Source: a virus
IMG/VR virus record: IMGVR_UViG_3300047552_002923
Location: 1-30,687 of that record
Direction: 5' to 3' (one strand)
DNA: 30,687 nt
Below the pieces are notes generated by a model that did not search any database, was not told the DNA's origin, and worked only from the letters and a program-made list of their open reading frames with translations. The translations under genes were made by a program, and so were the position numbers. Positions 14,903 to 30,687 of this stretch are shown here, piece after piece. Position 1 is the stretch's first letter; each line of letters begins with the position of its first letter.

Positions 14903-15541
14903 TCAAAGACCAAGGGTTCTTAGAAGACCACCAGTGCTGGCACCAACAATGAAGTTCTCACCCATGAACGGAATATCTGGACTGATTGCGGTTGGGATAG
15001 ATCCAGTCTTAGCACCGGCTCCAGCACGAACAGCAAAGTAATCATATGAGAATGTTACGGTGAATTTCTCAGGATCCTGATTTCCATGGTCGAGAGCAAT
15101 TTCACCAACTGTCTTTGGGAAGAGTCCTACAAACTGATAAACGAATACGGGTTCACCGATACGGTTTAACTGTGAAACAGTGACGTTATCAGACTTATAG
15201 AATAGTGGTGAACCTGCAACTTGACGCTCTGGATCGTAAACAGAACCCATCCACTGTAAGAATCTCAATCTGATTTCATGAGCGTCATCCAGGAGGAATT
15301 CACATTCCCAATCGCCACCCATTTCTGCGGAGGTGGCGACTTTGTAATTTAGACCCTGAAACGCTATATCAGTCGTTTGGATGCTATACTGTGGAAGCTT
15401 TGTAGTTCTGGCGAAACAAGACATTTCAATAGGATCAGAACCGATAGCGGGTATATTCACTTGAAATAGGTGAGCTCTTGAGTGATCACCTATTATGGTT
15501 CTGAAGTTATAAAGATTTCTATTTCCTGTTGGGAATGGCAT
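14903..15541 (-). CDS. 19: Tail tube protein gp19 (212 aa)
   Basis: ATG at 15539-15541 with AGGAG 7 bases upstream. The sequence carries the hallmarks of the T4 gp19 family: an NFRTIIGDHSRAHLFQVNIP start, RFLQWMGSVYDPERQV in the middle, VYQFVGLFPKTVGEIALDHGNQ and a FTVTFSYDYF strand at about 155-170. It is somewhat longer than T4 gp19 (163 aa), with a C-terminal extension after residue 170. Six-membered rings stack to form the inner tube through which DNA passes. It follows gp18 exactly as in T4. In T4 the portal gene 20 follows; here a gp19 paralogue and baseplate genes follow instead. Confidence 0.95.
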   Translation of the reverse strand: MPFPTGNRNLYNFRTIIGDHSRAHLFQVNIPAIGSDPIEMSCFARTTKLPQYSIQTTDIAFQGLNYKVATSAEMGGDWECEFLLDDAHEIRLRFLQWMGSVYDPERQVAGSPLFYKSDNVTVSQLNRIGEPVFVYQFVGLFPKTVGEIALDHGNQDPEKFTVTFSYDYFAVRAGAGAKTGSIPTAISPDIPFMGENFIVGASTGGLLRTLGL

Positions 15542-15578
15542 ATGTATCTCCTATCTGTTATAAATTAATTTATCCGTT

Positions 15579-17600
15579 TCAGCCCTTACCAACAACTTCC
15601 GAGAAGCTAGTACCGGTTCCAACTGCGGTGAATATGAGTTTTATAAATTCTATGACACGATTTGGTTTGACCAATATCTCAGCAACGAATTCATTTCTAT
15701 CTATCACATCAGGGGTGTTGTTTGTACCATCTGCAACAACGAGATAATCAGTTACACCACGACGGGCCTTTATTTCAGCAAGGAATCCATTAACAAGTCC
15801 AGAGAATCTGGCTCTTGTTATATCATCATTAAACTCAAAGAGGAAGTATCTTGCCAACTTTTCTATCGAACGCTCCATGTGTAGGAACAGGCGACGAACG
15901 TTTATTCTATCGAAAGCACTTGGTTTAGCTTGAAGTGTCTTCTGACCCCATATAACAACACCCTGTCCAACAAAGTTTGGAATTGGGTTTATTCTGTTAT
16001 AGTAAAGTATATCTCTATGTGCCTTTGTTGGATTAAGAGCTACTCTATTGATTCCAGAGATAACACCACGATTCAAACCAGCAGGTGCCCACCATGGATC
16101 GTATTGGAAGTCAACACGAGCGATGATTGCGCCGACATATCCAGTCGATGGAACCCAGCGGAACTTCTCATTATAGAAATCGAATATCTCAAAATACTGT
16201 CCGTATATAGCGGAATAAGAAGAATTGATATTCAACTCGGTATTGATATAGTTTGCCATATTTGTATAAACTCTGGCAACTGGTTTGGCATTTGTGACAT
16301 TTATCATCTTACTAACTGGAACGTTGAGAAGTGCCATGCAATCTTTTCTAACATTCTTACAAATATCATCAAGTGAACGCTTCAATATAGTTGGATAATC
16401 TGGGTCTAAGAGAATATCAACTTCAATTTCTTCCTTATTAGTGAAGAAGGTTCTCCATCCGAGTTCAATTTCACCAACAAGGTCAAAGAGATTTTCGGTG
16501 AGAGTGTCGGCGCCAGCGAGGGTGCGGACGCCAGTTGAGAATATATCATAACCAGCGGCAGATTCTTCGCTATATCCAATGAAGAAGTAAATGTAATTTG
16601 AATTGCCATTTACCAATTCAGGCCCGAACATCTTATTGCCCTGACCATCACGCTTGTCTTTCAATTTAGAGCAAAGATACTTCTCTTGTAGAGTACCATC
16701 AGCGTAAACAAACAAAACAAATTCATCTTTCTCAGCGGTTATTTCAGGACCATATTCAAATGCTGTCCACTCAGCAAGGCGACCGCTGTCAACATCCCAT
16801 TCACCAGTTGGTGTTTCCGATGGAGTGAATATCAACTCATCACGAAGAATACTTCCTATTAGATAATCACCGGTATCAGTAAATATTGGATTCGATGATG
16901 GTGGGGGTGTTACTCCACCCCAAACTTCATAACCAGGATCGCCTGAAGTAGTACCTGGAGCATTTCCATAGTAATACTTATAGATTATAGCTTGTGTTTC
17001 CTGAGAAGTTGCCGCTTGAGCAAGTTCTGATTTAAAGGTCAAAAGGGTCTGATAATCTTCAGCGTTTACAACTGCAACCTGAACCCCATCATAATAAGGA
17101 CCCGCACCGACTCCGAATATATGGAAAGTCTCATTATTTCTTGCAATGTCTTGAGCGGTTTGATCAGTTCCACCATTTCCGAAGAAAGGAACTCCACCAT
17201 CTAAAGCGAGGGGAGTTGTATCTGGAATGTTATCATATGTTGCTGGGAAATATTTAGCTTCAAGTGGGGTTGCCCATTCGGAAACCGTTGTTCCACCAGA
17301 CAAACCTATTGTCAAACCTGAGCATAGTGTATCTTCATTCTCAACACGAACAACATAAAGTTGACTAGATCCCTCAAGGAACGCTTTAGCGGTGAAGAAA
17401 TGCCTATAATTAACATCATCAGGTTCACCGAATGTGTCAACATAGTCCTTCTCAGTATTAATGAGGGTTCTTACATTCAAAGGTCCACGACCGGATGCAA
17501 CAACAATGGCACCCGTGGACGATGTGACGGTGGGAATGCGAAGCGAAACATCGCGTTCGATTACATCTACACCAGGGGAAAGGTTTGCTGATCCAGCCAT
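15579..17600 (-). CDS. 18: Tail sheath protein gp18 (673 aa)
   Basis: ATG at 17598-17600 with AAGGAG upstream. The N-terminus (LSPGVDVIERDVS, followed by TSSTGAIVVASGRGP) is the classic start of contractile sheath proteins. The C-terminus, with IWGQKTLQ, FDRINVRRLFLHMERSIEK and LARYFLFEFND, is the conserved domain that forms the intertwined sheath lattice. Length is close to T4 gp18 (659 aa). The middle insertion-rich domains are phage-specific. Sheath contraction drives the tube through the host envelope. Two late promoter motifs lie in the 85-base gap before it, in keeping with its high copy number. Confidence 0.97.
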   Translation of the reverse strand: MAGSANLSPGVDVIERDVSLRIPTVTSSTGAIVVASGRGPLNVRTLINTEKDYVDTFGEPDDVNYRHFFTAKAFLEGSSQLYVVRVENEDTLCSGLTIGLSGGTTVSEWATPLEAKYFPATYDNIPDTTPLALDGGVPFFGNGGTDQTAQDIARNNETFHIFGVGAGPYYDGVQVAVVNAEDYQTLLTFKSELAQAATSQETQAIIYKYYYGNAPGTTSGDPGYEVWGGVTPPPSSNPIFTDTGDYLIGSILRDELIFTPSETPTGEWDVDSGRLAEWTAFEYGPEITAEKDEFVLFVYADGTLQEKYLCSKLKDKRDGQGNKMFGPELVNGNSNYIYFFIGYSEESAAGYDIFSTGVRTLAGADTLTENLFDLVGEIELGWRTFFTNKEEIEVDILLDPDYPTILKRSLDDICKNVRKDCMALLNVPVSKMINVTNAKPVARVYTNMANYINTELNINSSYSAIYGQYFEIFDFYNEKFRWVPSTGYVGAIIARVDFQYDPWWAPAGLNRGVISGINRVALNPTKAHRDILYYNRINPIPNFVGQGVVIWGQKTLQAKPSAFDRINVRRLFLHMERSIEKLARYFLFEFNDDITRARFSGLVNGFLAEIKARRGVTDYLVVADGTNNTPDVIDRNEFVAEILVKPNRVIEFIKLIFTAVGTGTSFSEVVGKG

Positions 17601-17626
17601 ATTGTGCTCCTTTTTAACTCTATAAG

Positions 17627-17634
17627 TATTTATA
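17627..17634 (-). promoter_or_regulatory. T4-type late promoter, proximal to gp18
   Basis: Exact TATAAATA on the minus strand, 26 bases before the gp18 ATG. The start point would be near 17620, giving a short leader that keeps the AAGGAG site. Confidence 0.75.
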
Positions 17635-17677
17635 AGTGTTTTCTAAGTTTCTAATACTTTTTTAAAGCATTCAATAT

Positions 17678-17685
17678 TATTTATA
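17678..17685 (-). promoter_or_regulatory. T4-type late promoter, distal to gp18
   Basis: A second exact TATAAATA, directly abutting the terminase stop codon at 17686 and 51 bases upstream of the proximal copy. Two tandem motifs in one short gap suggest strong late transcription of the sheath and tube genes. Confidence 0.65.
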
Positions 17686-20600
17686 TCATCCCCTTCCCAA
17701 ACTATCCCTAAAGTGCTGTATTTCCGAATCTAAATCAGCAGAAGCACCAAACGATTTCATAAATGTTTGCATAACTTCTTCATCATTTTGCTGTTCATCA
17801 TTCAAATGAGCAGTTTGAACATTTTTACTGAGCATGAAATGTAAATGGTCTTCCCAATATTTAGACCTAAGCGCATATGCTGCCCAATATCCAGATGCCA
17901 CAATATCATCGTGAAAATTTCTACCCTGTCTTGCCTGGAATACACCAGTCTTCACTTCTTCAAAATAAGAAAGTTCAGTAACCATATCGGAAGAATTTAT
18001 TATCATCTTTTTAGTTTCAATATCATCTTTAAAATAAGATAACGCCAAAGGTTTCGTTTTAACAGATGCGTTTACCCCATATTCACCTTTGTCATAATCG
18101 TACCAAGTATTATCATAACCATCTTCATAATAGATATTGTGGACAACGGTGTGCCCAAGATGATTATTTTCTATAATAACAACCGCGTTATTGTATTTTT
18201 TACATATCTCTAATATTTTATCTTTAAAGTCAAAAACAGATATATCGTTTCTACGGAACAATGCCACCTGTTCATATGTTTGTTTAGTGTGCCAATCAGT
18301 GGCATCATACACATTTGCAACATGATAGTCAGTATTAGCGCCTTTAGCAACGTCACAAGATACCAAATATATTCTATTTGGGGCGGGTTTCTTCCACACA
18401 TAAAATCCCTCTTCCGGATAGAATGGTGGATCTATGGTTTTCATATTCTCCAACACCTCACCGTCTATAAGTGTGTATGAGGATCCAGAAAACGCACATG
18501 AATATTCTTGAGCGAATTTTACTTTGCCTATTGCCTGTATCTGTGTTTCTTTCCAAGACTCATCGCGATCAGGGTGGGCGCTCCAAGGGATTTTCATGGT
18601 CTTCCACGAAGTATTTTTTGCAGAGGTAGCGTTCTTCCATAACTCGTAGAATTTACCAGCGGTTCCGTTTGGGGTTGATACTACTACGATATTACCTCCA
18701 GTGTTACTTCCTAATATTCCATTTTGGAGGAAAGTATGTGTTTTTGGACAAGTAAAATCATAAGTATCACAGAATCCACTACTTATATTCTTTACTCTCA
18801 GATAAACACACTTATTATCCACAAATTCTCTTAAATACCCACTTCCTGTTAAATTTGATATTTTTTGCAGGGTATCGATGGGTATATTTTTTGTATTTCC
18901 ATTTAGAATTTTTTCAACCCTAACACCATGTCTTCTGAACCAATAAGCATTCTTACCACTCTCTTGAATTGATAATTTTATGGCATTGATAACATAATCA
19001 TTGGATGGTATATATTCTTGTTTATTTTTATTGTTTTCTTTTATGTTAACACAAATGAGTCTGTTTAACTTACGATGGATACGAAGTCCGAAATTCTTCA
19101 ATTCACCGGCATAACACCGTGATATGGTTAAAATATAAGAATCTTTTAGGGATTTTAATACGGTTCCTTGTGGTAATATATACTTACCTATCTTTTTAGA
19201 TTTATCTATTTTGTTTCTTCTGATTATGGAAACTATTCCCATGTTTATTAGGAGTAGTTGTATTCCAGACAGAATTTTTCTGGAAGTCGATGATATAGTC
19301 GTGTCTCCATGCTTATTAACATGCCCATCAGCGTCTATATATCCTGCTATAAATTGCTGCTGTAGTTCCTTCGGCACAGTAAACACTATCTTTGGGATAT
19401 ATTTGGTATCACATTTCTTTTCAGCAACATCACCGAGAAGATGTTTAAAAAATCTATAAGTTGCATTATCAGAAGATAGTTTTATTGATTTTTTTATTAC
19501 TTCGAACTTTAAATGTGGACTGTTTAAATAAACATCTCTAAACTCATTATCAGAATTTGATATAAGTATCCTATTTTGTGATACCCATCCCTCACCAATA
19601 TATCCACCCAACATATACATGATGTCATTTGTTAAACTTGGTATATTTAAATTGTATTTCCTGTTATTAGGGTAAACACCGTTATCATGATAATTTATTT
19701 CTTTAAAACTACCATATATATTCATACCTAAGTCAACTCTTACAGAATCACCAACTTTTAAATCTTTACTTTTCACCATCCCGACACCGTTATTGTTAAG
19801 AGTCATTATTGGATGATTTAATGTAGATTCATGTATAAATCCATATTCAGTTTCTATTATTTTTGTTTCGGAGTCAGGAGATACATAAAAATGACTGACA
19901 TCCTCCATTCCATTTTTTCCCCACACTGAGAGATTTTTTGTTTCAAAATAATCTCCCTTTTTACAATTAATTGGTATATAGTCACCTATCTCACGATATC
20001 CATCTTTTGTGAGAACCATAGTGTCCTTTGGTAAACATGAAAGAGTGGGATAATTTGCTACCCAAAATTGCTCTGCTATATTTTCAGCGACGAACGCAAA
20101 CTCGTCGAGAAACAACAAAGATATAGATTCGCCTCTTATAGCATCTGGCGATGTTGCTCTTGCAAAAATTCTACTCTCATTCTCAAATTTCATTTCCAAT
20201 TGATCGTATTTTTTAACTCCCGGTTTTAGCCAGGCGGGTAACATTTCATAACCCTTCTTTATATCATCCACGATACCAATGGCGGTTGATTGTTTGTTAG
20301 CAAGAATAGCAATCGTCTTGGAAGGGTTAAATATAGCAAACCAAAGAAGATATATAGATGCGCAGGTTGTATTGTGAGATACTATATTATTAGCGTAGTA
20401 TTGATGACTGTCAGTGCTTACTTCCACATCATACATATTATCTTCATAACCAAGATTATCGCATTTTATACATTTATGAAACCCTGTATCGGTTTTAATT
20501 TCATCACCAATACAAACATCTTTTAACCAAACTTCTTGCGTCTCGGTTTCATTTACTTTTTTATAAACTATATGCTCATCGGCGCCTTTTAGACTGTCCC

Positions 20601-20739
20601 CATTTTCAAGTTCCAGATACCAACATTCATATTTTTCGGTTTTCATTACTTTACTTATAGGTACAAACCCCTCGGGAGATTTTATCAAGTATTTCTCGGG
20701 AACACTATAAATTTCTTCAAACTTTTTTAGTTTCTGCAT
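17686..20739 (-). CDS. 17: Large terminase gp17, C-terminal part: split-intein C-fragment, ATPase, LAGLIDADG intein and nuclease (1017 aa)
   Basis: ATG at 20737-20739 with AGGA upstream, inside the end of the preceding nuclease gene (23-base overlap). In order: residues 1-123, the C-fragment of a split intein ending SHN; 124-234, TerL sequence starting at the TT of the Walker A motif, with Walker B LLFLDE near 208-213; 235-679, a complete intein; 680-1017, TerL with the coupling motif STPNG and a nuclease domain whose acidic residues appear as D796 (SCDVAKG), E857 (IIENN) and D944 (FHDD). Without splicing this polypeptide has no P-loop lysine. Joined to the 83-residue N-extein and freed of both inteins it gives about 532 aa. 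TerL pumps DNA into the head and cuts concatemers. Confidence 0.93.
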   Translation of the reverse strand: MQKLKKFEEIYSVPEKYLIKSPEGFVPISKVMKTEKYECWYLELENGDSLKGADEHIVYKKVNETETQEVWLKDVCIGDEIKTDTGFHKCIKCDNLGYEDNMYDVEVSTDSHQYYANNIVSHNTTCASIYLLWFAIFNPSKTIAILANKQSTAIGIVDDIKKGYEMLPAWLKPGVKKYDQLEMKFENESRIFARATSPDAIRGESISLLFLDEFAFVAENIAEQFWVANYPTLSCLPKDTMVLTKDGYREIGDYIPINCKKGDYFETKNLSVWGKNGMEDVSHFYVSPDSETKIIETEYGFIHESTLNHPIMTLNNNGVGMVKSKDLKVGDSVRVDLGMNIYGSFKEINYHDNGVYPNNRKYNLNIPSLTNDIMYMLGGYIGEGWVSQNRILISNSDNEFRDVYLNSPHLKFEVIKKSIKLSSDNATYRFFKHLLGDVAEKKCDTKYIPKIVFTVPKELQQQFIAGYIDADGHVNKHGDTTISSTSRKILSGIQLLLINMGIVSIIRRNKIDKSKKIGKYILPQGTVLKSLKDSYILTISRCYAGELKNFGLRIHRKLNRLICVNIKENNKNKQEYIPSNDYVINAIKLSIQESGKNAYWFRRHGVRVEKILNGNTKNIPIDTLQKISNLTGSGYLREFVDNKCVYLRVKNISSGFCDTYDFTCPKTHTFLQNGILGSNTGGNIVVVSTPNGTAGKFYELWKNATSAKNTSWKTMKIPWSAHPDRDESWKETQIQAIGKVKFAQEYSCAFSGSSYTLIDGEVLENMKTIDPPFYPEEGFYVWKKPAPNRIYLVSCDVAKGANTDYHVANVYDATDWHTKQTYEQVALFRRNDISVFDFKDKILEICKKYNNAVVIIENNHLGHTVVHNIYYEDGYDNTWYDYDKGEYGVNASVKTKPLALSYFKDDIETKKMIINSSDMVTELSYFEEVKTGVFQARQGRNFHDDIVASGYWAAYALRSKYWEDHLHFMLSKNVQTAHLNDEQQNDEEVMQTFMKSFGASADLDSEIQHFRDSLGRG
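18703..20037 (-). other. Cis-splicing LAGLIDADG intein in TerL (445 aa)
   Basis: It begins at Cys235 (CLPKDTMVLTKDGY, block A), has block B GFIHESTLNHPIMT, two LAGLIDADG motifs (LGGYIGEGW near 377-385 and IAGYIDADGH near 464-473) with both acidic residues kept, and ends in block F/G TYDFTCPKTHTFLQNGILGSN before Thr680. Precise removal restores YPTLS joined to TGGNIVVVSTPNG, a continuous terminase motif. The penultimate residue is Ser rather than the usual His. Residues about 578-640, between the nuclease and block F, look like an extra helix-turn-helix DNA-binding module (NIPIDTLQKISNLTG). Confidence 0.92.
20371..20739 (-). other. Split intein C-fragment (IntC, 123 aa)
   Basis: Residues 1-123 of the downstream terminase gene. 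A block B-like segment (SLKGADEHIVYKK) and block F/G (YDVEVSTDSHQYYANNIVSHN region, near 103-123) are present, ending His-Asn before Thr124. Block A is absent here and found only on the N-fragment gene. This is a long C-fragment paired with a short N-fragment, the reverse of the common split and like the phage terminase intein AceL-TerL. Confidence 0.92.
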
Positions 20740-21916
20740 TTTTTATCCTATTTATTATATCACATGCAATAGTTTCTACAACTTTATCAGGATTTTGTTT
20801 ATAATCTCTCTCCAAAACGTGAATTATTGTTATCCCAGGGTTGTTTTCTTTTATTTTTAATTCTCTTATGTTGTCTCTTTCTTTATTCCCACGCTTCTCA
20901 CCGTGCCAATAATCACCATCGAACTCAACACAATAGTTTATAGAAGGAACGTAGAAGTCTAAGAAAAAACAACTCTGCCGATCTACACTCGTTGTCATAA
21001 ATTCATAATTATCGTTCAAAGAAACTATTTCGCAGTTTGGTTTTGTGGCGTAATATGTTTTTACATTTAGATTAGATATACGTTTATCAATATCAATGAA
21101 TAAACTTTGCGATATTTTAGAATAACCCCTACCATTCCCCATTTTTGCTCTTTGTATTCTTTCTATTTCTTCCACGGGTTTACTTAGTAAGGTTTGCTGC
21201 CACCTTTTCTGCCTATCTTCCCAAATCTTCAATCCTTCAATTTTCCCATGTTTTTCTATCAGATTCTCTTTAGTGAATGTTCGTTGTCTTTCTTTTCTTT
21301 TTTGTTTTGCTTCTTCTTCGCCATATCCTTTACTTATCCAGTATTCCAGTTGAGATGGATTGAGTGAAAAAGTAGGGTCTTGTTTTTTCTTTTTAGATAC
21401 AGTTTCCATTGCTTTTTTTACTCTATTAGTATTCTTGGAATACCATGTTGTAGAACACGAGAAACTACAAAAATCATGAAACCCGGTGTCAAATCTAAAA
21501 CCGGTTTCGTTTCCACATTCTTTGCAACGCATTTCACTTTTATCTTTTATTATATATTTAACATAATAATCTTTTGGAGTTATATCATGATTTTTAGAAA
21601 GGTGCCTTGATAACCAGTTTCTCCCAACAAATGTTTCGCCACAAATTTCACATTTTATGTCTCGTGGTTTTTGATCACGATTTTCCTTATCAATTTGGGA
21701 TTGAGTTTTCATTCCATGAACCTTTGCTTTATGTTCCGATAAAACTCTTTTAGATAAAAACATTTCTCCACAAATATCACATGCAATAGTTTCGACACCT
21801 TCATGTTTTATCTTATATTCTACCATTTTCATTTGATGTTTTGATAAAAGATGTTGATTAAAAGAAGATTTAGGAACTTCTTTGTTGCATTCTTTACACA
21901 AGATAAACTCTGTCAT
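20717..21916 (-). CDS. Zinc-finger/Vsr-like homing endonuclease between the terminase halves (399 aa)
   Basis: I choose the ATG at 21914-21916 because AGGAG lies 6 bases before it; the ATG two codons upstream sits directly on the AGGAG. Three C2H2-type fingers occupy about residues 7-110 (CKEC, CDIC and CEIC each followed by H-x3-H or similar), then a fourth CKECG...C cluster near 131-154. A coiled, basic linker containing an LNPSQLEYWISKGY segment follows. The C-terminal third (about 310-375) has FLDFYVPSINYCVEFDGDYWHG and IIHVLERDY, the layout of Vsr-like nucleases (EDxHD family). A free-standing nuclease gene between intein-split gene halves is the known fractured-gene arrangement. It probably cuts terminase alleles lacking the insertion. 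Its own late promoter lies just upstream. Confidence 0.88.
   Translation of the reverse strand: MTEFILCKECNKEVPKSSFNQHLLSKHQMKMVEYKIKHEGVETIACDICGEMFLSKRVLSEHKAKVHGMKTQSQIDKENRDQKPRDIKCEICGETFVGRNWLSRHLSKNHDITPKDYYVKYIIKDKSEMRCKECGNETGFRFDTGFHDFCSFSCSTTWYSKNTNRVKKAMETVSKKKKQDPTFSLNPSQLEYWISKGYGEEEAKQKRKERQRTFTKENLIEKHGKIEGLKIWEDRQKRWQQTLLSKPVEEIERIQRAKMGNGRGYSKISQSLFIDIDKRISNLNVKTYYATKPNCEIVSLNDNYEFMTTSVDRQSCFFLDFYVPSINYCVEFDGDYWHGEKRGNKERDNIRELKIKENNPGITIIHVLERDYKQNPDKVVETIACDIINRIKNAETKKV
20757..20776 (-). repeat. 20-bp direct repeat, 3' copy
   Basis: An exact match to 21774-21793, 1017 bases away (a multiple of three). Both lie in the same frame of the nuclease gene, encoding ETIACDI. Confidence 0.9.
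21774..21793 (-). repeat. 20-bp direct repeat, 5' copy
   Basis: Partner of 20757-20776. This copy falls in the second zinc finger, while the other falls in the C-terminal helix after the nuclease domain. Confidence 0.9.
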
Positions 21917-21935
21917 AAACATCTCCTATTATAAG

Positions 21936-21943
21936 TATTTATA
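21936..21943 (-). promoter_or_regulatory. T4-type late promoter between terminase halves
   Basis: Exact TATAAATA in the gap between the N-fragment terminase gene and the nuclease gene. Transcription would start near 21929 and cover the nuclease gene and the downstream terminase half, separately from the upstream half. Confidence 0.7.
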
Positions 21944-21969
21944 CCCGCTTATCATATAGGGAAACGAGT

Positions 21970-22320
21970 TTATTCAACCTTTATTTTTTCAAAGAAATCC
22001 CCTATCTTCATTTTAGTCACCTCACCGGTTTCTTTGTTCATTATTTCTACAATAGTGTCAAAATGAACACATTTACCTAATTGTCGTGCTGCCATAATAA
22101 GATTCTGACGGTTATTCCTCATATTTTCCAACATCTCTCGTTGGAATGGAAATAGGTTTATTACCTCTTCACCTCTAACGGGATGAATAATCGTGTAATA
22201 CTTTTCAGCAAAATACGTAATATCAGAAGCACACCTTGCCAATTCTTGCAACATATGAGCTGTAAACTGTATTTGCCTACCCGGCTTAACAATATATCTA
22301 TCATCATACTGAATTGGCAT
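21970..22320 (-). CDS. 17: Large terminase gp17, N-terminal part with split-intein N-fragment (116 aa)
   Basis: ATG at 22318-22320 with GGGAG upstream, inside the 3' end of the preceding nuclease gene (17-base overlap). Residues 1-83 are the terminase N-extein, ending AARQLGK, the same as the Walker A block SRQLGKTT of T4 gp17 up to its lysine. Residues 84-116 are an intein N-fragment starting CVHFDTIVEI and ending at a stop codon. The next terminase residues, TT, occur only in the separate downstream gene after IntC. The product alone cannot bind ATP and must be trans-spliced to the downstream product. The N-terminal region preceding the P-loop includes the usual adenine-binding context (FPFQREML). 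Expression of the two halves must be balanced. Confidence 0.93.
   Translation of the reverse strand: MPIQYDDRYIVKPGRQIQFTAHMLQELARCASDITYFAEKYYTIIHPVRGEEVINLFPFQREMLENMRNNRQNLIMAARQLGKCVHFDTIVEIMNKETGEVTKMKIGDFFEKIKVE
21973..22071 (-). other. Split intein N-fragment (IntN, 33 aa)
   Basis: It starts at Cys84 of the N-terminal terminase gene. Block A is CVHFDTIVEI, followed by a short charged segment and KMKIGDFFEKI. This resembles the N-fragment of AceL-TerL (C-V-x-x-D-T-x-V-E then K-I-K-I-x-D). The fragment holds only block A, so the split lies between blocks A and B. Confidence 0.9.
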
Positions 22321-24016
22321 TAATATTCTCCCAAATATATCTTATTTTACCACAATCATATATTTTATAGTAATTACTTCTACTCATAGCCATTTCTTCA
22401 GTTTCACCGTCCTCAATCATGTTCTTTTTCTTGAGGGCATCTTTTCTGAATCCAAATCTATGGTATCTTATAAGAGATGTCTTATCAACATAAAAGTAGC
22501 TAGGAGGCGATACACCATCATTTTTAAATCCAAGCACATCATACAAATTGCCATCTGAAAAAGAGTAGTCGGCATATGAAACTATATTTTTTGGATTATG
22601 AACATTAATGAAATGTTTAAGTAGTTTGGATGCTCCACCAGTTACAATCGAGTCCCTAACAGTTGCATATCTGACCAACTCCCATTCATACTTTTTTCTC
22701 TTGACTACATTTGAGAAAGACATTAAAGCCACCAGAACTTTATCGTAATATAATCCATAAGAAACTTTTGAAAACGTCCACCCCTGAATATGATTTTGTT
22801 CGTAAAAATCCTTTTGTGCTTTAATATCTTCAACTAAATGTATTTCACATTTCCTAGCAAATATTTTTGAACTGGTATATCCCAATATATTTCTTATTTT
22901 ATATTTTATAATGTCTTTTTTGTGTATCCACTCATCTTCAAATAGATGTATTAATCTTATGTTTTTATCGGCACATTTAAGTGTCTTATCTAGGTGGTAT
23001 GAATTTGTCTTTGATTCGGAGTTGTGCCAAAATACTCCGTTGAATTCTATTCCTATTCTCTTTTCCGGAATGAAAATATCTATCTCTTTTCCAATGATAT
23101 CTCTAACATTAGATTGTATATCTCCATCATAAAATGATTTTATATATTCTATTATTTCCTTTTCATATGATGAAACCGATGACTGGAGCGGGTGGCAAGT
23201 CAAACAAAGCGGTATGTTTCTCTTTATTCTATTTCCTATGTGTTTGGTGCTATATTCTGATATTGATTGGCAATCTTTGCATTTTATAGATATATTTTCA
23301 CTTTGGTATGCGTCTATTTCACAATTAAAGTGCGGAAGAGTTTCTTCTAAAAATTTAATGTATTTTTTCTTCTTGGATTCTATGGTATTTTTTCTAAGTT
23401 TTATAACTTCTTCTTCACTCTTCAATGACCAAGTTTTCTTAAACCTTTCACGGTTTGTAAAGTTTTTATCACCATACTTATTTAATTTAGTTTCTTTTGC
23501 CTTTTCAATATTAACATAATTACAGTCGCCATATTTCTCCATTTTTGTTTTCATTATACTATCTTTTATATCTTTATTATTCATCCTGCAATTTAAATCG
23601 CTACAATATTCGTGATATCCTTTAGATATACTAATAAACCCCTTTTCTTTCCCACATTCAGCACATACATTCTCATTATCTTTAATAAGATACATATCAT
23701 AGTATTGTTTACCATTTAAATTATGTTCTTTTATTAAATGGTTACTAACAAATACTTTATACCCTGTATATGGCGTTTTTTTCTGACAGTGTAAACACAC
23801 TATTCCATTTGAAAGATGTTCTTTTATCTTGCGGTTTATTTGTTCGTTTTTGTTGTTTTTATCAGCAATTAGTTTATCCACTTCGTCTTTATTGAAGTAG
23901 AAAGTGTTGTCAATTTTTATAAATGATAACTTTTTTACTTTACGCCAATAATCAACATTCTGAGATTTCACATTACAATATTCAGCAACTTCCGACGTTT
24001 TCATAGTATATTTCAT
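22304..24016 (-). CDS. Vsr-like homing endonuclease with GNAT-like C-terminal domain (570 aa)
   Basis: Lies between gp16 and the first terminase half and ends 17 bases inside the latter. Residues 5-50 form a MerR-like helix-turn-helix (MKTSEVAEYCNVKSQNVDYWRK). Several Cys/His clusters follow (about 74-98, 118-143), then KYGDxN-type repeats near 160-190 like NUMOD3 DNA-binding motifs, and another zinc pair (246-274). The nuclease core is at about 284-375: EIDIFIPEKRIGIEFNGVFWH and LIHLFEDEW. Residues about 385-570 (NHIQG, VTGGASKLLKHF, YADYSFSDG, LYDVLGF) resemble a GNAT acyltransferase-like fold. The ATG at 24014-24016 has no Shine-Dalgarno; Met5 (24004) is an alternative start. A late promoter lies just upstream. 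It is probably a mobile nuclease targeting the terminase region. Confidence 0.87.
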   Translation of the reverse strand: MKYTMKTSEVAEYCNVKSQNVDYWRKVKKLSFIKIDNTFYFNKDEVDKLIADKNNKNEQINRKIKEHLSNGIVCLHCQKKTPYTGYKVFVSNHLIKEHNLNGKQYYDMYLIKDNENVCAECGKEKGFISISKGYHEYCSDLNCRMNNKDIKDSIMKTKMEKYGDCNYVNIEKAKETKLNKYGDKNFTNRERFKKTWSLKSEEEVIKLRKNTIESKKKKYIKFLEETLPHFNCEIDAYQSENISIKCKDCQSISEYSTKHIGNRIKRNIPLCLTCHPLQSSVSSYEKEIIEYIKSFYDGDIQSNVRDIIGKEIDIFIPEKRIGIEFNGVFWHNSESKTNSYHLDKTLKCADKNIRLIHLFEDEWIHKKDIIKYKIRNILGYTSSKIFARKCEIHLVEDIKAQKDFYEQNHIQGWTFSKVSYGLYYDKVLVALMSFSNVVKRKKYEWELVRYATVRDSIVTGGASKLLKHFINVHNPKNIVSYADYSFSDGNLYDVLGFKNDGVSPPSYFYVDKTSLIRYHRFGFRKDALKKKNMIEDGETEEMAMSRSNYYKIYDCGKIRYIWENINANSV

Positions 24017-24022
24017 ATACCA

Positions 24023-24030
24023 TATTTATA
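24023..24030 (-). promoter_or_regulatory. T4-type late promoter at the 570-aa nuclease gene
   Basis: Exact TATAAATA only 6 bases before the ATG at 24016. By T4 spacing the transcript would begin at or within a base or two of that A, making the mRNA leaderless, or leaving about 12 untranslated bases if Met5 is the start. The transcript would continue into the first terminase half. Confidence 0.65.
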
Positions 24031-24068
24031 CTAAATTCCAAAATTATTCAATGATATACTCTGGATTT

Positions 24069-24671
24069 TTAACTATCTTCTTTGAATAAAGTCCCAGGTG
24101 ACTCCTTATTCACAATCTCTTTATCAACTTCGACCTGAACTTCTTTCATATTATCAAACCCCTGTTGTCTGATAGCTTTTAGAGCATCCGACATTGAACC
24201 TATTATCAAAACATTACCAGCACCATTTCCATTTGGTAGTCCTGCGGTGGCAGATTTTTCTTTCAAGTCAACTTTTCTTTTTTCTAGAGATAATTTGGTT
24301 TTATCATTTTCAACATCACCAAGTTGTTTTACAGCAGCGGTCACAGCATTTGCCATAGCGGACATACATTCGCCCATTCGACCCGTTGGATCCAATGTCA
24401 TCTCGTCTTGCATCTGTCTCAAAGAAGTCAAACCGATGGTTGTAATTTCCTTAAGCGCCTCTTTAATAAATCGCTCATCACCAAGATCTTTAACCTTTTC
24501 GAGATTTGCCCGTACTTTGTCGGATTCTTCTTTACGTTCTAAATATCTTTTTCTAGCTTCTTCTTCTTTCATGCTTTGCAATGTTTTAGTAGAAGGACTG
24601 GAATCAAAATCTTTCATCGTATCGGATATATCCAGAATTGAATCTATTTTATCTTTTGATATTTTTCCCAT
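24069..24671 (-). CDS. 16: Small terminase subunit gp16 (200 aa)
   Basis: I choose the ATG at 24669-24671 (MGKISKDKID) because AGGTG lies 6 bases upstream. A GTG three codons earlier is in frame but has no ribosome site and overlaps the gp15 stop. Position between gp15 and gp17 is that of T4 gp16. By eye, DKIDSILDISD near the start matches DINKLLDISD of T4, and NVLIIGSMSDAL near residue 155 matches the ATVFMGSPTELM segment. The centre is a long charged helical region, suiting the coiled oligomer-forming core of small terminases. It recognises DNA and stimulates gp17. At 200 aa it is longer than T4 gp16 (164 aa), mostly in the helical region. Confidence 0.85.
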   Translation of the reverse strand: MGKISKDKIDSILDISDTMKDFDSSPSTKTLQSMKEEEARKRYLERKEESDKVRANLEKVKDLGDERFIKEALKEITTIGLTSLRQMQDEMTLDPTGRMGECMSAMANAVTAAVKQLGDVENDKTKLSLEKRKVDLKEKSATAGLPNGNGAGNVLIIGSMSDALKAIRQQGFDNMKEVQVEVDKEIVNKESPGTLFKEDS

Positions 24672-24676
24672 AGATT

Positions 24677-25648
24677 TCACCTATTATTATTTTCATTATC
24701 CAAACCCCTTTGTATATCGGCATCCGGTATACCATATAGGTAATTTGGTTGTTGTATTTCGTTTGGATTTTGTGGATTTGGGTTTTTTCCAGTAACGGGT
24801 TGATTCGAAGACAACCCATCTCTATATTGCCAACCCATATATTCATTCATATTATTATCAAATTGAACTTTATAACTCCATATCTTAGCATCCATGTCTA
24901 GATAATTTGAAGACCCAGACACATCTGGGAGAGATACGACCGATACCTCCGAACCCTCCACCGTTGGTTCGGGGGCGCCTCGTTTGGTAATATCCATACC
25001 AATACGAGTGCTGATTCTTTTGATGGGTTTGGATATTGGGAGTTGCGGTTTATAAAAGTTACACTCCATTCGGAATCCCAAATTACATTGGAGAACCCTT
25101 CTGTCAGGGTCGGACAATTCAACTACGAAATTAGGAGTAACTGATTCGAGAACAACCTTGACCTGACGCTCGCTACCAACACCACGTTCGTAGAGAGATA
25201 CTGGTGCCTCGGGATTGAAAAATGGAAGTATATTTTCTAAAAGTTGTGCCATGTCTGACATATACTTCGTCCATAGAGTCAACTCTATATTTAAATCATA
25301 TGGAACCGTTTGCATATCCATAATAATATATGGATCTTCCTGTGATTCATAATCAACCAAAACTCTTCTTTTTTCTAATTGTCCCCTTTGCCGCTCTTGA
25401 TTTCTTGATATCCCATTCCAAGTTATAGACATTCGAGGTAGATAGTTTGGAGGATTTTTATCTGGTGTGGACGGGTCCGCCATTAACTCGGATACGACTT
25501 TCTCTTTTGGTGCAAGTGTTACCGGTACGGGTTTCCACCCAATCGCCTTCCCATCCTTATCGTAATTTATAACGGACATTTCATTGAAAATATCTGCAAA
25601 GGACGTGACATGCGTTAATATAACATTATTAAAGAAGTAAGAATACAC
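24677..25648 (-). CDS. 15: Tail completion / sheath stabiliser gp15 (323 aa)
   Basis: The start codon is GTG (25646-25648), supported by AGGAG 9 bases upstream. The N-terminus (YSYFFNNVILTHVTSFADIFNEM) and the middle (MSITWNG, VPYDLNIELTLWTKYMSDMAQLLENILPFF, then YERG) run parallel to T4 gp15 (YELSIFTRYEDDMFQIVEQILPYF). In T4, gp15 caps the finished tail and joins it to the head neck. The C-terminal 100 residues extend beyond T4 gp15 (272 aa), with a Pro/Asn-rich end (PNPQNPNEIQQPNY). The neighbours gp14 and gp16 are as in T4. The gene ends just before the gp16 start. Confidence 0.92.
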   Translation of the reverse strand: MYSYFFNNVILTHVTSFADIFNEMSVINYDKDGKAIGWKPVPVTLAPKEKVVSELMADPSTPDKNPPNYLPRMSITWNGISRNQERQRGQLEKRRVLVDYESQEDPYIIMDMQTVPYDLNIELTLWTKYMSDMAQLLENILPFFNPEAPVSLYERGVGSERQVKVVLESVTPNFVVELSDPDRRVLQCNLGFRMECNFYKPQLPISKPIKRISTRIGMDITKRGAPEPTVEGSEVSVVSLPDVSGSSNYLDMDAKIWSYKVQFDNNMNEYMGWQYRDGLSSNQPVTGKNPNPQNPNEIQQPNYLYGIPDADIQRGLDNENNNR

Positions 25649-25676: not shown

Positions 25677-26462
25677 TCACCAATGTCCCCAATCCATTTT
25701 ATCCTTACCACTTCTACTTATTATACCACGACCACCGGGCATCACTGGATTTCCATTCTCATCAACTCCATCTGCTATGTGCTGAATAGCATCGTTATCA
25801 CCATGATACGATCCGCCTTTATTGTCTTTAGTAAGACCTGGGACCTTATATTTCTCTTTTATTTCACCATCAACATTTATCAAGTCCGCTGGAGAGTTTG
25901 GAAGCACATTGCCCTCGCTATCAGTATGTCCATATCTTTCACCATCACCAATCTCAGCGGGAGATATCTCACGCTCCTTAGCAATGATGGTATATGTTGT
26001 TCTATGTCCGAAAATGTTACCCTGAACACCAAGAGTAGATTCGGTTACATGCATAACTTCAAAGACCTGATTCGTTATATCTTTTACGAAAGTAAATTGA
26101 TCAGATGGAAGAGGTTTCCTGCCAACAATATCTCTAAATGATTGATGGTGGAGATGCATGGTGAATTCTACTTTATTCGTCATACCATATTGGTTAAACA
26201 AAACATTTTCTTGGACAGAACCACCTTCAATAATCGCAGTAATCATAACCTTTCTAGGATATTTTTTGTTAGGATCTTCCCCGAATACTTTATTCATTGG
26301 ACTGGTTATATCAACCTCCACTGGATACCATTCACACGGAACACCATATATATTAAATATTTCATTGGCAATATCGTCATAAAATTGAAACTCCGAGGAG
26401 TTCGACATCGCCCCTTTATATTGATCCCAAAAGTTCTTTTGATCTAAGTTATTAATTGACAT
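25677..26462 (-). CDS. 14: Neck protein gp14 (261 aa)
   Basis: ATG at 26460-26462; the ribosome site is weak (GGA about 7 bases upstream) and lies inside the end of the preceding nuclease gene, which overlaps it by 19 bases. The protein matches gp14 neck proteins in length (T4: 256 aa) and layout: FYDDIANEIFNIYGVPCEWYPV near 27-48, a VMITAIIEGG strand, and FTMHLHHQSFRDIVGRKPLPSDQF near 100-120. Residues after about 175 form a polar C-terminal tail. With gp13 it forms the collar to which tail and whiskers bind. The native ribosome site may have been altered by insertion of the nuclease gene. Confidence 0.9.
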   Translation of the reverse strand: MSINNLDQKNFWDQYKGAMSNSSEFQFYDDIANEIFNIYGVPCEWYPVEVDITSPMNKVFGEDPNKKYPRKVMITAIIEGGSVQENVLFNQYGMTNKVEFTMHLHHQSFRDIVGRKPLPSDQFTFVKDITNQVFEVMHVTESTLGVQGNIFGHRTTYTIIAKEREISPAEIGDGERYGHTDSEGNVLPNSPADLINVDGEIKEKYKVPGLTKDNKGGSYHGDNDAIQHIADGVDENGNPVMPGGRGIISRSGKDKMDWGHW

Positions 26463-27532
26463 ATCGTATCCAATATATTATGTATATCACTGTCATTATA
26501 CCAGTATGGTATAACTATCAGATTTATACCGTTACTTTTACAATATTCATTTAGCAAATTGTCTCTATTTTTTTGCTTTTCAAAATTCTTTGCAGCGTGT
26601 TCTGAAGAAATACCACCGAATCTTATAGGTTTATAATGTTGCTCTCCATTACGCTCTATTATAATTTTCTCATTTATGTAAAAATCTACGAATACATTTT
26701 TATTGTCTATTTTTATATTATACTGTGGTATATACTTTATATTCTTTGATATTAGTATATCTTTTATCTTATTTTCAGATTTCTTGTAGCAGCAGGGACA
26801 CCCACGGTCATCGTTTATTATCCTACTTGGATCGGCGTACCATTTATTATCACACTTCTTACAACCGAAAAGAATCTTTCTTTTAGATCCGATATAGTCA
26901 CCTATTCTATATATGGTTTTATGTTTCAAAAGATAGTCCACTCTTTCGTTAGTGTATCTTTCTTTACCGGAACACCTTGGACAACCGTTACCAGAGATTT
27001 TCTTTAGATTTGATAATCTAGCATTCCATATATATCCGTCTCTTTTACAGCATACTTTTATTTTGTCATTACATCCAGTAAACTCACCAACCCGATATAA
27101 TTGTTTATTGTAAAGAATTAAGTCAACATCGGTTAATGGTGTTACTTCACTCCCACCAACATTACAGTTTGTACATCCTTGGTTGTCATTAATGATATGC
27201 GAAGGTGAATTTTTCCACACTTGGTTGCACTTATTACATTGAATTTTTATAGAAACGTTCATATTGATATATTCATCAATAATAGTTAAATTTCTTTTTT
27301 TAAATTCAGTTTTTATAGTATGTATATCTTTTTTATTATTACCTTTACACTTTGCGCACCCTTTTCCCATATATAAATTACTATATCTACACATCCATTG
27401 ATGAGAATCATGAACACATTCCACTAAAAATGAAGTAGATGTATTAACAAAATCCCCCAATCTTCGTATTCCCCTCTCTGTGAGAATACTATCCACTTTT
27501 TCTACAGAAATTCTTTTGTTAATACTAGGCAA
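26444..27532 (-). CDS. Homing-type endonuclease with four zinc-ribbon-like repeats (362 aa)
   Basis: The start is TTG at 27530-27532, supported by AGGAG 8 bases upstream within the last codons of gp13. Four related units of about 61-64 residues end in G-C-x-x-C at 58-62, 119-123, 183-187 and 244-248; units two and four also carry an internal CxxC followed by W. These look like tandem zinc-ribbon/treble-clef DNA-binding modules. Residues about 252-345 form a PD-(D/E)xK/Vsr-like nuclease with FVDFYINEKIIIERNGEQHY and a later LIVIPYW strand. It separates gp13 from gp14, overlapping both, so it probably homes into that boundary. Its zinc-repeat plan differs from the other nucleases here. Confidence 0.85.
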   Translation of the reverse strand: MPSINKRISVEKVDSILTERGIRRLGDFVNTSTSFLVECVHDSHQWMCRYSNLYMGKGCAKCKGNNKKDIHTIKTEFKKRNLTIIDEYINMNVSIKIQCNKCNQVWKNSPSHIINDNQGCTNCNVGGSEVTPLTDVDLILYNKQLYRVGEFTGCNDKIKVCCKRDGYIWNARLSNLKKISGNGCPRCSGKERYTNERVDYLLKHKTIYRIGDYIGSKRKILFGCKKCDNKWYADPSRIINDDRGCPCCYKKSENKIKDILISKNIKYIPQYNIKIDNKNVFVDFYINEKIIIERNGEQHYKPIRFGGISSEHAAKNFEKQKNRDNLLNEYCKSNGINLIVIPYWYNDSDIHNILDTICQLIT

Positions 27533-29577: not shown

Positions 29578-30687
29578 TTATTTTCTAATATACCTTATAT
29601 GACCACAGTCATATATCCGATATAGTCCTAGTTTCTCTGAAAGAGTTGTCTCGGTGTCGTCGTTGGTGTATGGAATACCTAAAGATATACACTTCTTGAC
29701 AAGTTTCTTTTTATCAAATCCAAACTTATGCTTGCGGCACCATCGGGTGTCAACACCACAATAAGTATAGTCAACATCTAGTATTTTGTCTTCTAAAAAT
29801 CCTATTTTTTTATAGAATTCACTGTTACCCCATCTATTATCGGAGAATGTAACTATAGAAATATCTTTATATATTTTAATGAAGTTATTTAATAGTTTTC
29901 CAGCACCACCAGTTACATTACAACCCTTCACGGCAGCATATCTTTGTAACTCCCACTGACAGTCTCCACTTTTTATTTTACCATGTCTAATGGCGAATGA
30001 CATCATACATACTATATTACCGTTATACTTTAACCCATAGCAAAGACCAGACTTCGAAGGTGATCCTTGAATGTGGTTCGCATTAAAAAAATCCCTTGCA
30101 GAATAACTATCAACTTCAACTATTTCACATTTACGAGCATAAACCTTATCGCCACTTTTACCTAATATACTTGTTATTCTAGATTTACATATATCTGTTT
30201 TGTTTTTCCACTCATCATCAAATATAGTTATCAAACGATAACCAACTTCATTACACATATCATATTTCTTTTTATGGTAACTTCTATCATTCTTAAATTT
30301 TGAAGAGTGCCAAATAACCCCACAGAATTCAAATGCCACTTTTTTAGAGTGACATACTATATCTAATTCATATGGTTCTATAGTATTTTTATCGTTTTGG
30401 ACTGCTTCTGGTTCTATGGATTTTATAAAGTCGTAGAATTCACTTTGACTCTTTCTTTTTGTTGAGGTATAACATTTATCACAAGTAATCTTATAGTAGT
30501 TTCCAGTTATACTTGCCCAACTTTTTTTACACACATCGCCACAATTATTACAAACAAATTGAATTGGAGTAGTGATGTCGGTGTATTCTAACTTATTTTT
30601 AGGGTAGAAATTACAATCAATACATATATTTCTAATTTTCTCACACACTCTTATAGAGTCAGTATTCTTTCTACATCCTAAACACCC
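29578..30687 (-). CDS. Vsr-like homing endonuclease with GNAT-like domain, 5'-partial
   Basis: The frame stays open to the right edge. A GTG at 30646-30648 could be taken as the start, but the 13 codons upstream of it read GCLGCRKNTDSIR, which includes another CxxC that fits the zinc clusters following (CIDC, CNNCGDVC, CDKC). I therefore think the true start lies outside the window. The nuclease core has ELDIVCHSKKVAFEFCGVIWH and LITIFDDEW. The C-terminal domain has NHIQG, VTGGAGKLLNNF, FSDNRWGNSEFYKKIGF and YRIYDCGHIRYI, the same order as the end of the 570-aa nuclease at 22304-24016, so the two are paralogues. It is probably a mobile nuclease inserted upstream of the neck gene cluster. Confidence 0.87.
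   Translation of the reverse strand, partial: GCLGCRKNTDSIRVCEKIRNICIDCNFYPKNKLEYTDITTPIQFVCNNCGDVCKKSWASITGNYYKITCDKCYTSTKRKSQSEFYDFIKSIEPEAVQNDKNTIEPYELDIVCHSKKVAFEFCGVIWHSSKFKNDRSYHKKKYDMCNEVGYRLITIFDDEWKNKTDICKSRITSILGKSGDKVYARKCEIVEVDSYSARDFFNANHIQGSPSKSGLCYGLKYNGNIVCMMSFAIRHGKIKSGDCQWELQRYAAVKGCNVTGGAGKLLNNFIKIYKDISIVTFSDNRWGNSEFYKKIGFLEDKILDVDYTYCGVDTRWCRKHKFGFDKKKLVKKCISLGIPYTNDDTETTLSEKLGLYRIYDCGHIRYIRK

What the first reader, a model, noticed from the sequence alone, without database searches (positions are those of the whole stretch)
17686..22320. Terminase fractured at the Walker A motif by an atypical split intein with a nuclease gene between the halves
Seen: one gene ends AARQLGK plus a 33-aa intein N-fragment and a stop. 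A second gene, about 1.2 kb downstream, starts with a 123-aa intein C-fragment ending SHN and then TTCASIY, so splicing rebuilds ARQLGKTT. Between them is a complete zinc-finger/Vsr-like nuclease gene. Known: fractured genes with split inteins and this nuclease type have been described from environmental phage sequences, and the AceL-TerL intein has a similarly short N-fragment. Inferred: each half is inactive until trans-splicing, since the break is right after the catalytic lysine, so packaging depends on the intein. With the extra cis-intein, TerL needs two splicing events.
Basis: partly seen in the sequence, partly recalled or inferred. Interest (0 to 1): 0.87.

Follow-up and report, generated by a model that had tools for sequence, protein, structure and literature searches.

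The report
Phage packaging gene split by intein
A virus of bacteria encodes its DNA-packaging motor as two separate proteins, cut exactly at the motor's ATP-binding site, that must be stitched together by a split self-splicing element carrying its own DNA-cutting gene; relatives show the same break in stages from unbroken, to broken, to scattered across the genome.

Summary
On the minus strand, terL is broken between the Walker A Lys and Thr. TerL-N (83 aa) plus IntN (33 aa) ends in a stop. A 399-401 aa zinc-finger/Vsr-fold nuclease gene follows. Then IntC (123 aa) plus TerL-C, which itself holds a 445-aa LAGLIDADG cis-intein. Four phages with 81-89% identical TerL have uninterrupted terL whose junctions match both predicted splice sites to the codon; a second contig carries an identical arrangement. 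The nuclease model matches I-Bth0305I and Vsr.

Best explanation: a 'fractured gene', an S2-type atypical split intein that trans-splices TerL and spreads by homing. It belongs to a P-loop clade (38 distinct loci found), not the AceL/GOS-TerL clade, which uses another TerL site and Cys+1. Relatives show four states: contiguous mini-intein; fractured; dispersed halves in isolated phages (Vibrio phage vB_VmeM-32, Salicola phage SCTP-2); and three lineages where terL reads through the nuclease gene in another frame with no stops (about 20 expected).

Splicing and cleavage were not tested. New variant of a known kind.

The parts
22072..22320 (-). TerL N-extein, 83 aa, ending at the Walker A lysine (ARQLGK)
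   Evidence: Translation; 78-96% identical to continuous TerL of L002-L005; K83 aligns with T4 gp17 K166
21973..22071 (-). IntN, 33 aa, Cys1, ends after the first predicted helix, then TAA (21970-21972)
   Evidence: 31-38 aa typical in homologous split loci
21923..21969 (-). Short intergenic stretch with TATAAATA (21936-21943; T4-late-promoter-like) and AGGAG before the nuclease gene
   Evidence: same position in L090. TATAAATA is not in excess in the window as a whole, so function is not shown
20717..21922 (-). HEG1: nuclease gene between the halves, C2H2-type zinc fingers plus Vsr/EDxHD-type catalytic domain (401 aa, or 399 aa from Met3)
   Evidence: AlphaFold pLDDT 87.5; Z 9.7 to I-Bth0305I 3r3p, Z 8.0 to Vsr 1cw0; invariant E307, D322, E333, D335, W339, H340, E371 present
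20371..20739 (-). IntC, 123 aa, ends His122-Asn123, followed by Thr+1
   Evidence: profile matches CatC (AceL/GOS consensus intein) E 2.3e-11 and gp41-1 E 8.8e-11 in the PDB
20038..20370 (-). TerL C-extein part 1, 111 aa (Walker A Thr to PTLS)
18703..20037 (-). Cis-intein Int2, 445 aa, with LAGLIDADG homing endonuclease domain; Cys1, ends Ser-Asn before Thr+1
   Evidence: Pfam LAGLIDADG_3 8e-14, Intein_splicing 1e-9; exact empty site in L002-L005
17689..18702 (-). TerL C-extein part 2, 338 aa (end of ATPase plus nuclease domain); stop 17686-17688
22304..24016 (-). HEG2: free-standing homing-type nuclease, 570 aa, upstream of terL and overlapping its start by 17 nt
   Evidence: PHROG_3339 homing endonuclease E 1.7e-107; present in L002/L005 without inteins, absent in L003/L004

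Best explanation
A terminase large-subunit gene fractured by a mobile split intein. Two separately translated proteins, TerL-N-IntN and IntC-TerL-C, associate through the intein fragments; the rebuilt HINT domain (Cys1, His122-Asn123, Thr+1) joins Lys83 to the Walker A Thr, rebuilding ARQLGK-TTC. Independently, the 445-aa cis-intein is removed from TerL-C, giving a 532-aa T4-type TerL. The nuclease gene between the halves is a homing endonuclease that cuts intein-free terL at or near the P-loop, so that repair copies IntN-HEG-IntC (1,701 nt) into the cut allele. Shown here: anatomy, exact empty alleles, intact catalytic residues in intein and nuclease, nuclease fold, patchy distribution, and dependence of two isolated phages on dispersed terL pieces bearing the same intein. 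Inferred: trans-splicing of this very pair, cleavage specificity and homing.
For: Exact in-frame junctions against four intein-free alleles. IntC profile finds CatC, gp41-1, VidaL and NrdJ-1 inteins in the PDB. All 18 aligned P-loop IntC end SHN with Thr/Ser+1. Nuclease fold and invariant active-site residues. 38 distinct TerL P-loop loci with the IntC, nearly all next to this nuclease family. In a TerL tree the window is the only filled member of a 6-row clade (support 100); filled/empty needs 17 changes, at least 12 on supported branches. Isolated phages vB_VmeM-32 and SCTP-2 carry the halves tens to hundreds of kb apart, and I found no intact terL in either record. The unsplit form is an annotated 159-aa intein in Salmonella phage Maynard.
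Against: No splicing or cleavage assay. Only a 30.7-kb fragment, so a second terL elsewhere cannot be excluded. Block B of IntC reads ADEH instead of TxxH, although gp41-1-like inteins tolerate changes there (own knowledge). Int2 has Ser instead of His before its last Asn. In the window lineage, loss in all sisters instead of gain cannot be strictly excluded.
Confidence: 0.88

Rival explanations
1. The halves do not splice. The arrangement is a broken, decaying terL (pseudogene), and another terL or a helper phage provides packaging.
For: The record is a fragment, so another copy is possible. Two inteins and two nuclease genes in or beside one gene could be seen as decay.
Against: All extein and intein frames are open, all splicing residues are kept, TerL residues stay 81-89% identical to intact relatives while synonymous sites are heavily changed, and the same arrangement recurs in 38 distinct loci. 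Isolated phages live with dispersed halves.
Confidence: 0.05
2. The gene is rejoined at RNA level: the interruption is a group I or II intron carrying a nuclease, and the intein resemblance is secondary.
For: terL genes of other phages are split by group I introns (Jug phages, PMC12363816; ICP1, PMC10448857).
Against: No Rfam match at E<=1 in 15000-25500. The segments next to the break are coding and carry the intein catalytic residues; an intron would not need them. Homologues occur as continuous protein-level inteins.
Confidence: 0.02
3. The split intein is real and splices, but the break is now kept because it is hard to reverse or controls packaging timing; the nuclease is no longer an active homing enzyme.
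For: L115, L139, L140 and L145 keep the split with only a remnant of the nuclease; dispersed halves have none. The nuclease gene here has its own TATAAATA/AGGAG upstream, which could unlink expression of the halves.
Against: The window's nuclease is full length with all invariant active-site residues, and its nearest relatives are intein-free, which fits recent mobility.
Confidence: 0.2

Closest known systems
Fractured genes with split inteins and Vsr-related homing endonucleases (Dassa et al. 2009, NAR 37:2560; known to me from its abstract, full text not held)
   Same: Conserved enzyme gene broken by a split intein with a free-standing Vsr-related nuclease gene between the halves, in phage DNA.
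   Different: As I recall the abstract, the original set was DNA synthesis and repair enzymes; here it is the packaging motor, split exactly at Walker A, with a second, cis intein in the same gene.
AceL-TerL, GOS-TerL and Cat-TerL atypical split inteins (PMC11766414, PMC13014065)
   Same: Same atypical S2-type split after the first helix, short IntN (25-37 aa there, 33 here), host protein TerL, detectable sequence kinship of IntC (CatC, E 2.3e-11).
   Different: Thr+1 instead of Cys+1. A different insertion-site clade: CatC falls with inteins at the QEY|C site, not with the P-loop group.
Cis P-loop TerL inteins: TerL1-a of mycobacteriophages (PMC5050341) and Ackermannviridae TerL (Salmonella phage Maynard, KF669654)
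   Same: Same position, between the Walker A Lys and Thr; the Ackermannviridae intein is of the same IntC family.
   Different: Contiguous, one polypeptide; in Maynard no nuclease.
I-Bth0305I / Vsr (EDxHD) nucleases
   Same: Fold of the catalytic domain (Z 9.7 and 8.0).
   Different: Low sequence identity (16-18%), fused here to several zinc fingers; cleavage site unknown.

Membership tests
Fractured gene with split intein and homing endonuclease | Conserved gene broken in two by matching intein halves | tested here: met
Fractured gene with split intein and homing endonuclease | Free-standing endonuclease gene between the halves, Vsr-related | tested here: met
Fractured gene with split intein and homing endonuclease | Control elements brought in with the nuclease gene | tested here: inconclusive
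   TATAAATA plus AGGAG precede HEG1, but TATAAATA is no more frequent in the window than chance
Fractured gene with split intein and homing endonuclease | Homing: cleavage of the intein-free allele | not testable with these tools
   Empty alleles and patchy distribution fit it
Class 1 intein (HINT) | Cys1 or Ser1, penultimate His, terminal Asn, +1 nucleophile | tested here: met
   Cys84, His122, Asn123, Thr+1
Class 1 intein (HINT) | Block B TxxH | tested here: inconclusive
   ADEH; A, D and H invariant in the 18 aligned P-loop IntC
Atypical (S2) split intein of AceL/GOS-TerL type | Short IntN ending after the first helix | tested here: met
   33 aa; in the model of the continuous homologue the first helix starts at residue 23 (low overall confidence); S2 definition in PMC13014065
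Atypical (S2) split intein of AceL/GOS-TerL type | Same insertion-site clade and Cys+1 | tested here: not met
   Thr+1; CatC groups with the other TerL site
Atypical (S2) split intein of AceL/GOS-TerL type | Trans-splicing activity | not testable with these tools
   Needs expression of the two ORFs
I-Bth0305I/Vsr (EDxHD) homing endonuclease | Catalytic-domain fold with conserved active-site residues | tested here: met
   Z 9.7 to 3r3p, 8.0 to 1cw0; invariant E307, D322, E333, D335, H340, E371
T4-type large terminase | Walker A, ATPase and nuclease domains over full length | tested here: met
   Spliced sequence matches T4 gp17, E 7.6e-73 over residues 16-465

The most novel reading that the evidence does not exclude
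The window is one stage of a natural gene-breaking series at the TerL P-loop: a contiguous mini-intein (Ackermannviridae), then invasion of its S2 loop by a Vsr-type nuclease gene that breaks terL (window and about 30 other split loci), and then either dispersal of the halves over the genome (vB_VmeM-32; SCTP-2, three pieces) or re-fusion by overprinting, in which the terL frame has been kept free of stop codons right through the out-of-frame nuclease gene (L121, L130-L135, L206), so that about 840-940 nt encode a nuclease in one frame and an intein spacer in another.
Probability: 0.7. Interest if true: 0.82.

Novelty: new variant of a known kind. Interest (0 to 1): 0.62.

Why it matters
The motor that packages the genome would depend on joining two proteins at the catalytic P-loop, so a selfish element holds an essential function. 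The P-loop family gives a set of natural, atypically split inteins with short N fragments and Thr/Ser+1 at a site distinct from the AceL/GOS type, useful for protein labelling. Because intact, contiguous, fractured, dispersed and overprinted alleles of one gene can be lined up, the long-standing question of how genes become permanently broken by inteins becomes directly testable.

Tried and rejected
Group I/II introns: no Rfam match at E<=1 in 15000-25500. Co-conversion tracts near the site: synonymous differences are spread over all of terL in every comparison, so no tract can be read. TATAAATA as proof of a late promoter: no excess over shuffles. Same allele as AceL-TerL: rejected by insertion site, +1 residue and tree. 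Hidden read-through in the window itself: rejected, 36 stops. Intein-nuclease co-inheritance: IntC, nuclease and TerL distances correlate about equally (r 0.44-0.48; partial r 0.29 for IntC-nuclease), so no clear conclusion. Primary papers on AceL/GOS-TerL and fractured genes are not held. No held paper found on dispersed terL in SCTP-2 or vB_VmeM-32 (titles and abstracts only). Model of the continuous overprinted intein is low confidence (pLDDT 41; best Foldseek matches are inteins).

Full report
Observation. TerL-N (83 aa) is followed in frame by a 33-aa IntN and a stop; 47 nt later a 401-codon nuclease ORF starts; its end overlaps by 23 nt the start of the third ORF, which begins with a 123-aa IntC and goes on as TerL-C. 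TerL-C is interrupted by a 445-aa intein with a LAGLIDADG domain. The spliced protein is 532 aa and matches T4 gp17 over residues 16-465 (E 7.6e-73); the ungapped alignment puts the break between gp17 K166 and T167, inside Walker A.

Empty alleles. A search with the spliced protein found four phages whose TerL is 81-89% identical and uninterrupted. The three extein blocks abut exactly at both predicted junctions, which fixes both inteins to the codon. L002/L005 carry the upstream 570-aa nuclease HEG2 (55% identical) without any intein, and L003/L004 have neither, so HEG2 is an independent insert between the small-terminase position and terL. A separately assembled contig from another IMG sample is identical to the window over 9,390 bp including the whole arrangement.

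Intein. IntN starts with Cys; IntC ends His-Asn before Thr+1. A profile of 18 P-loop IntC finds as best solved structure CatC, the consensus of AceL/GOS-TerL, then gp41-1, VidaL and NrdJ-1. A 33-aa IntN ending after the first helix is the S2 split described for AceL and GOS TerL (PMC13014065). But it is not that allele: in a tree of TerL inteins CatC falls with inteins at a second site (QEY|C), as do L008, L009, L106 and L162, while the P-loop inteins separate from them; +1 is Cys at the former site and in AceL/GOS/Cat (PMC11766414), Thr/Ser at the P-loop. Equating the QEY|C site with the native AceL/GOS site is an inference from this tree and the +1 residue.

Nuclease. The AlphaFold model (27 sequences, pLDDT 87.5) has N-terminal zinc fingers and a C-terminal domain matching I-Bth0305I (Z 9.7) and Vsr (Z 8.0). 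E307, D322, E333, D335, W339, H340 and E371 are invariant in the family and present here.

Family. A scan with HEG1 gave 80 loci. An IntC model built iteratively found an IntC beside most of them; in 38 distinct cases it is followed by the TerL P-loop C-extein. Thirty of the 33 distinct cases with the N half on the contig are split, with IntN of 31-72 aa. The sample is biased towards loci with the nuclease. Four loci keep the split with only a remnant of the nuclease. In a TerL tree of 130 rows the window is the only filled member of a well-supported clade of six; filled and empty need 17 changes, at least 12 on supported branches. This supports mobility, though gain and loss cannot be separated everywhere.

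Other states of the same intein. (1) Contiguous: Ackermannviridae such as Salmonella phage Maynard have it as a 159-aa cis-intein, annotated there as Cys110-Asn268. (2) Dispersed: Vibrio phage vB_VmeM-32 has TerL-N-IntN at 79959-80255 (minus) and IntC-TerL-C at 1102-3216 (plus); Salicola phage SCTP-2 has three genes annotated 'terminase large subunit' (224, 267, 534) at about 216, 256 and 429 kb, the first junction being this intein and gene 267 ending in another intein N fragment. Both are isolated phages and no intact terL was found in either record, which makes trans-splicing of this intein type in nature very likely; this is inference. (3) Overprinted: in L121, L130-L135 and L206 terL is one open frame through IntN, a spacer of roughly 280-310 codons and IntC, with the nuclease in a shifted frame inside it. 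Synonymous recoding of the nuclease (5,000 trials each, four loci) predicts 19-23 stops in the terL frame; observed 0, never reached. Fourteen split loci with the same relative frame have 21-64 stops. Between close pairs changes in the overlap are mostly silent in the nuclease frame (22 to 9) and mostly replacing in the terL frame (3 to 28), as if the spacer only has to stay open.

Mechanism and limits. Trans-splicing of this pair, cleavage by HEG1 and homing were not tested. The record is a fragment, so a second terL cannot be excluded. Int2 has Ser before its last Asn, so its splicing is the less certain of the two. Verdict: a real, well-supported fractured TerL with an atypical split intein, a new variant (Walker A site, Thr+1) of a known kind, and an entry point to a family that shows gene breaking in several stages.

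Noticed in passing
L133:4613-8011, L121:4544-7591, L206:3604-6477 (also L130-L132, L134, L135): terL is one continuous open frame while the Vsr-type nuclease is encoded in a shifted frame inside it: dual coding of about 840-940 nt, 0 stops against 19-23 expected.
   Followed up: partly
L186/L200 (KU160494) and L185/L199/L201 (MF360958); L187/L191 (LR756501): TerL halves with matching intein fragments at distant loci: two pieces in vB_VmeM-32, three in SCTP-2; about 13 kb apart in the uncultured phage LR756501.
   Followed up: partly
L011:64-5467: TerL with four apparent inteins in three polypeptides: a split one at the P-loop, a cis one before Walker B, a split one just after Walker B without nuclease, and a cis one at the QEF|C-type site.
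   Followed up: partly
L009:3848-5953: Split intein at the QEY|C TerL site with a TnpB-type gene (Pfam OrfB_IS605 6e-31) and a zinc-finger nuclease remnant between the halves; L008 has a zinc-finger DUF7487 gene there.
   Followed up: partly
L007:227-988 and L009:2389-3066: TerL-like ATPase-only ORFs with degenerate Walker A just upstream of the full terL.
   Followed up: no
L007:1581-4187: LAGLIDADG cis-intein at the same P-loop K|T site that starts with Ala instead of Cys.
   Followed up: no
26444-27532 and 29578-30648: Two more homing-type nuclease ORFs among neck and tail genes: treble-clef DUF4379 repeats, and a relative of HEG2 (about 37-40% identity to HEG2 and its homologue), so four nuclease genes plus a LAGLIDADG intein in 31 kb.
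   Followed up: no
909-3326: 805-aa ORF holding a run of more than 200 serines, almost unbroken.
   Followed up: no
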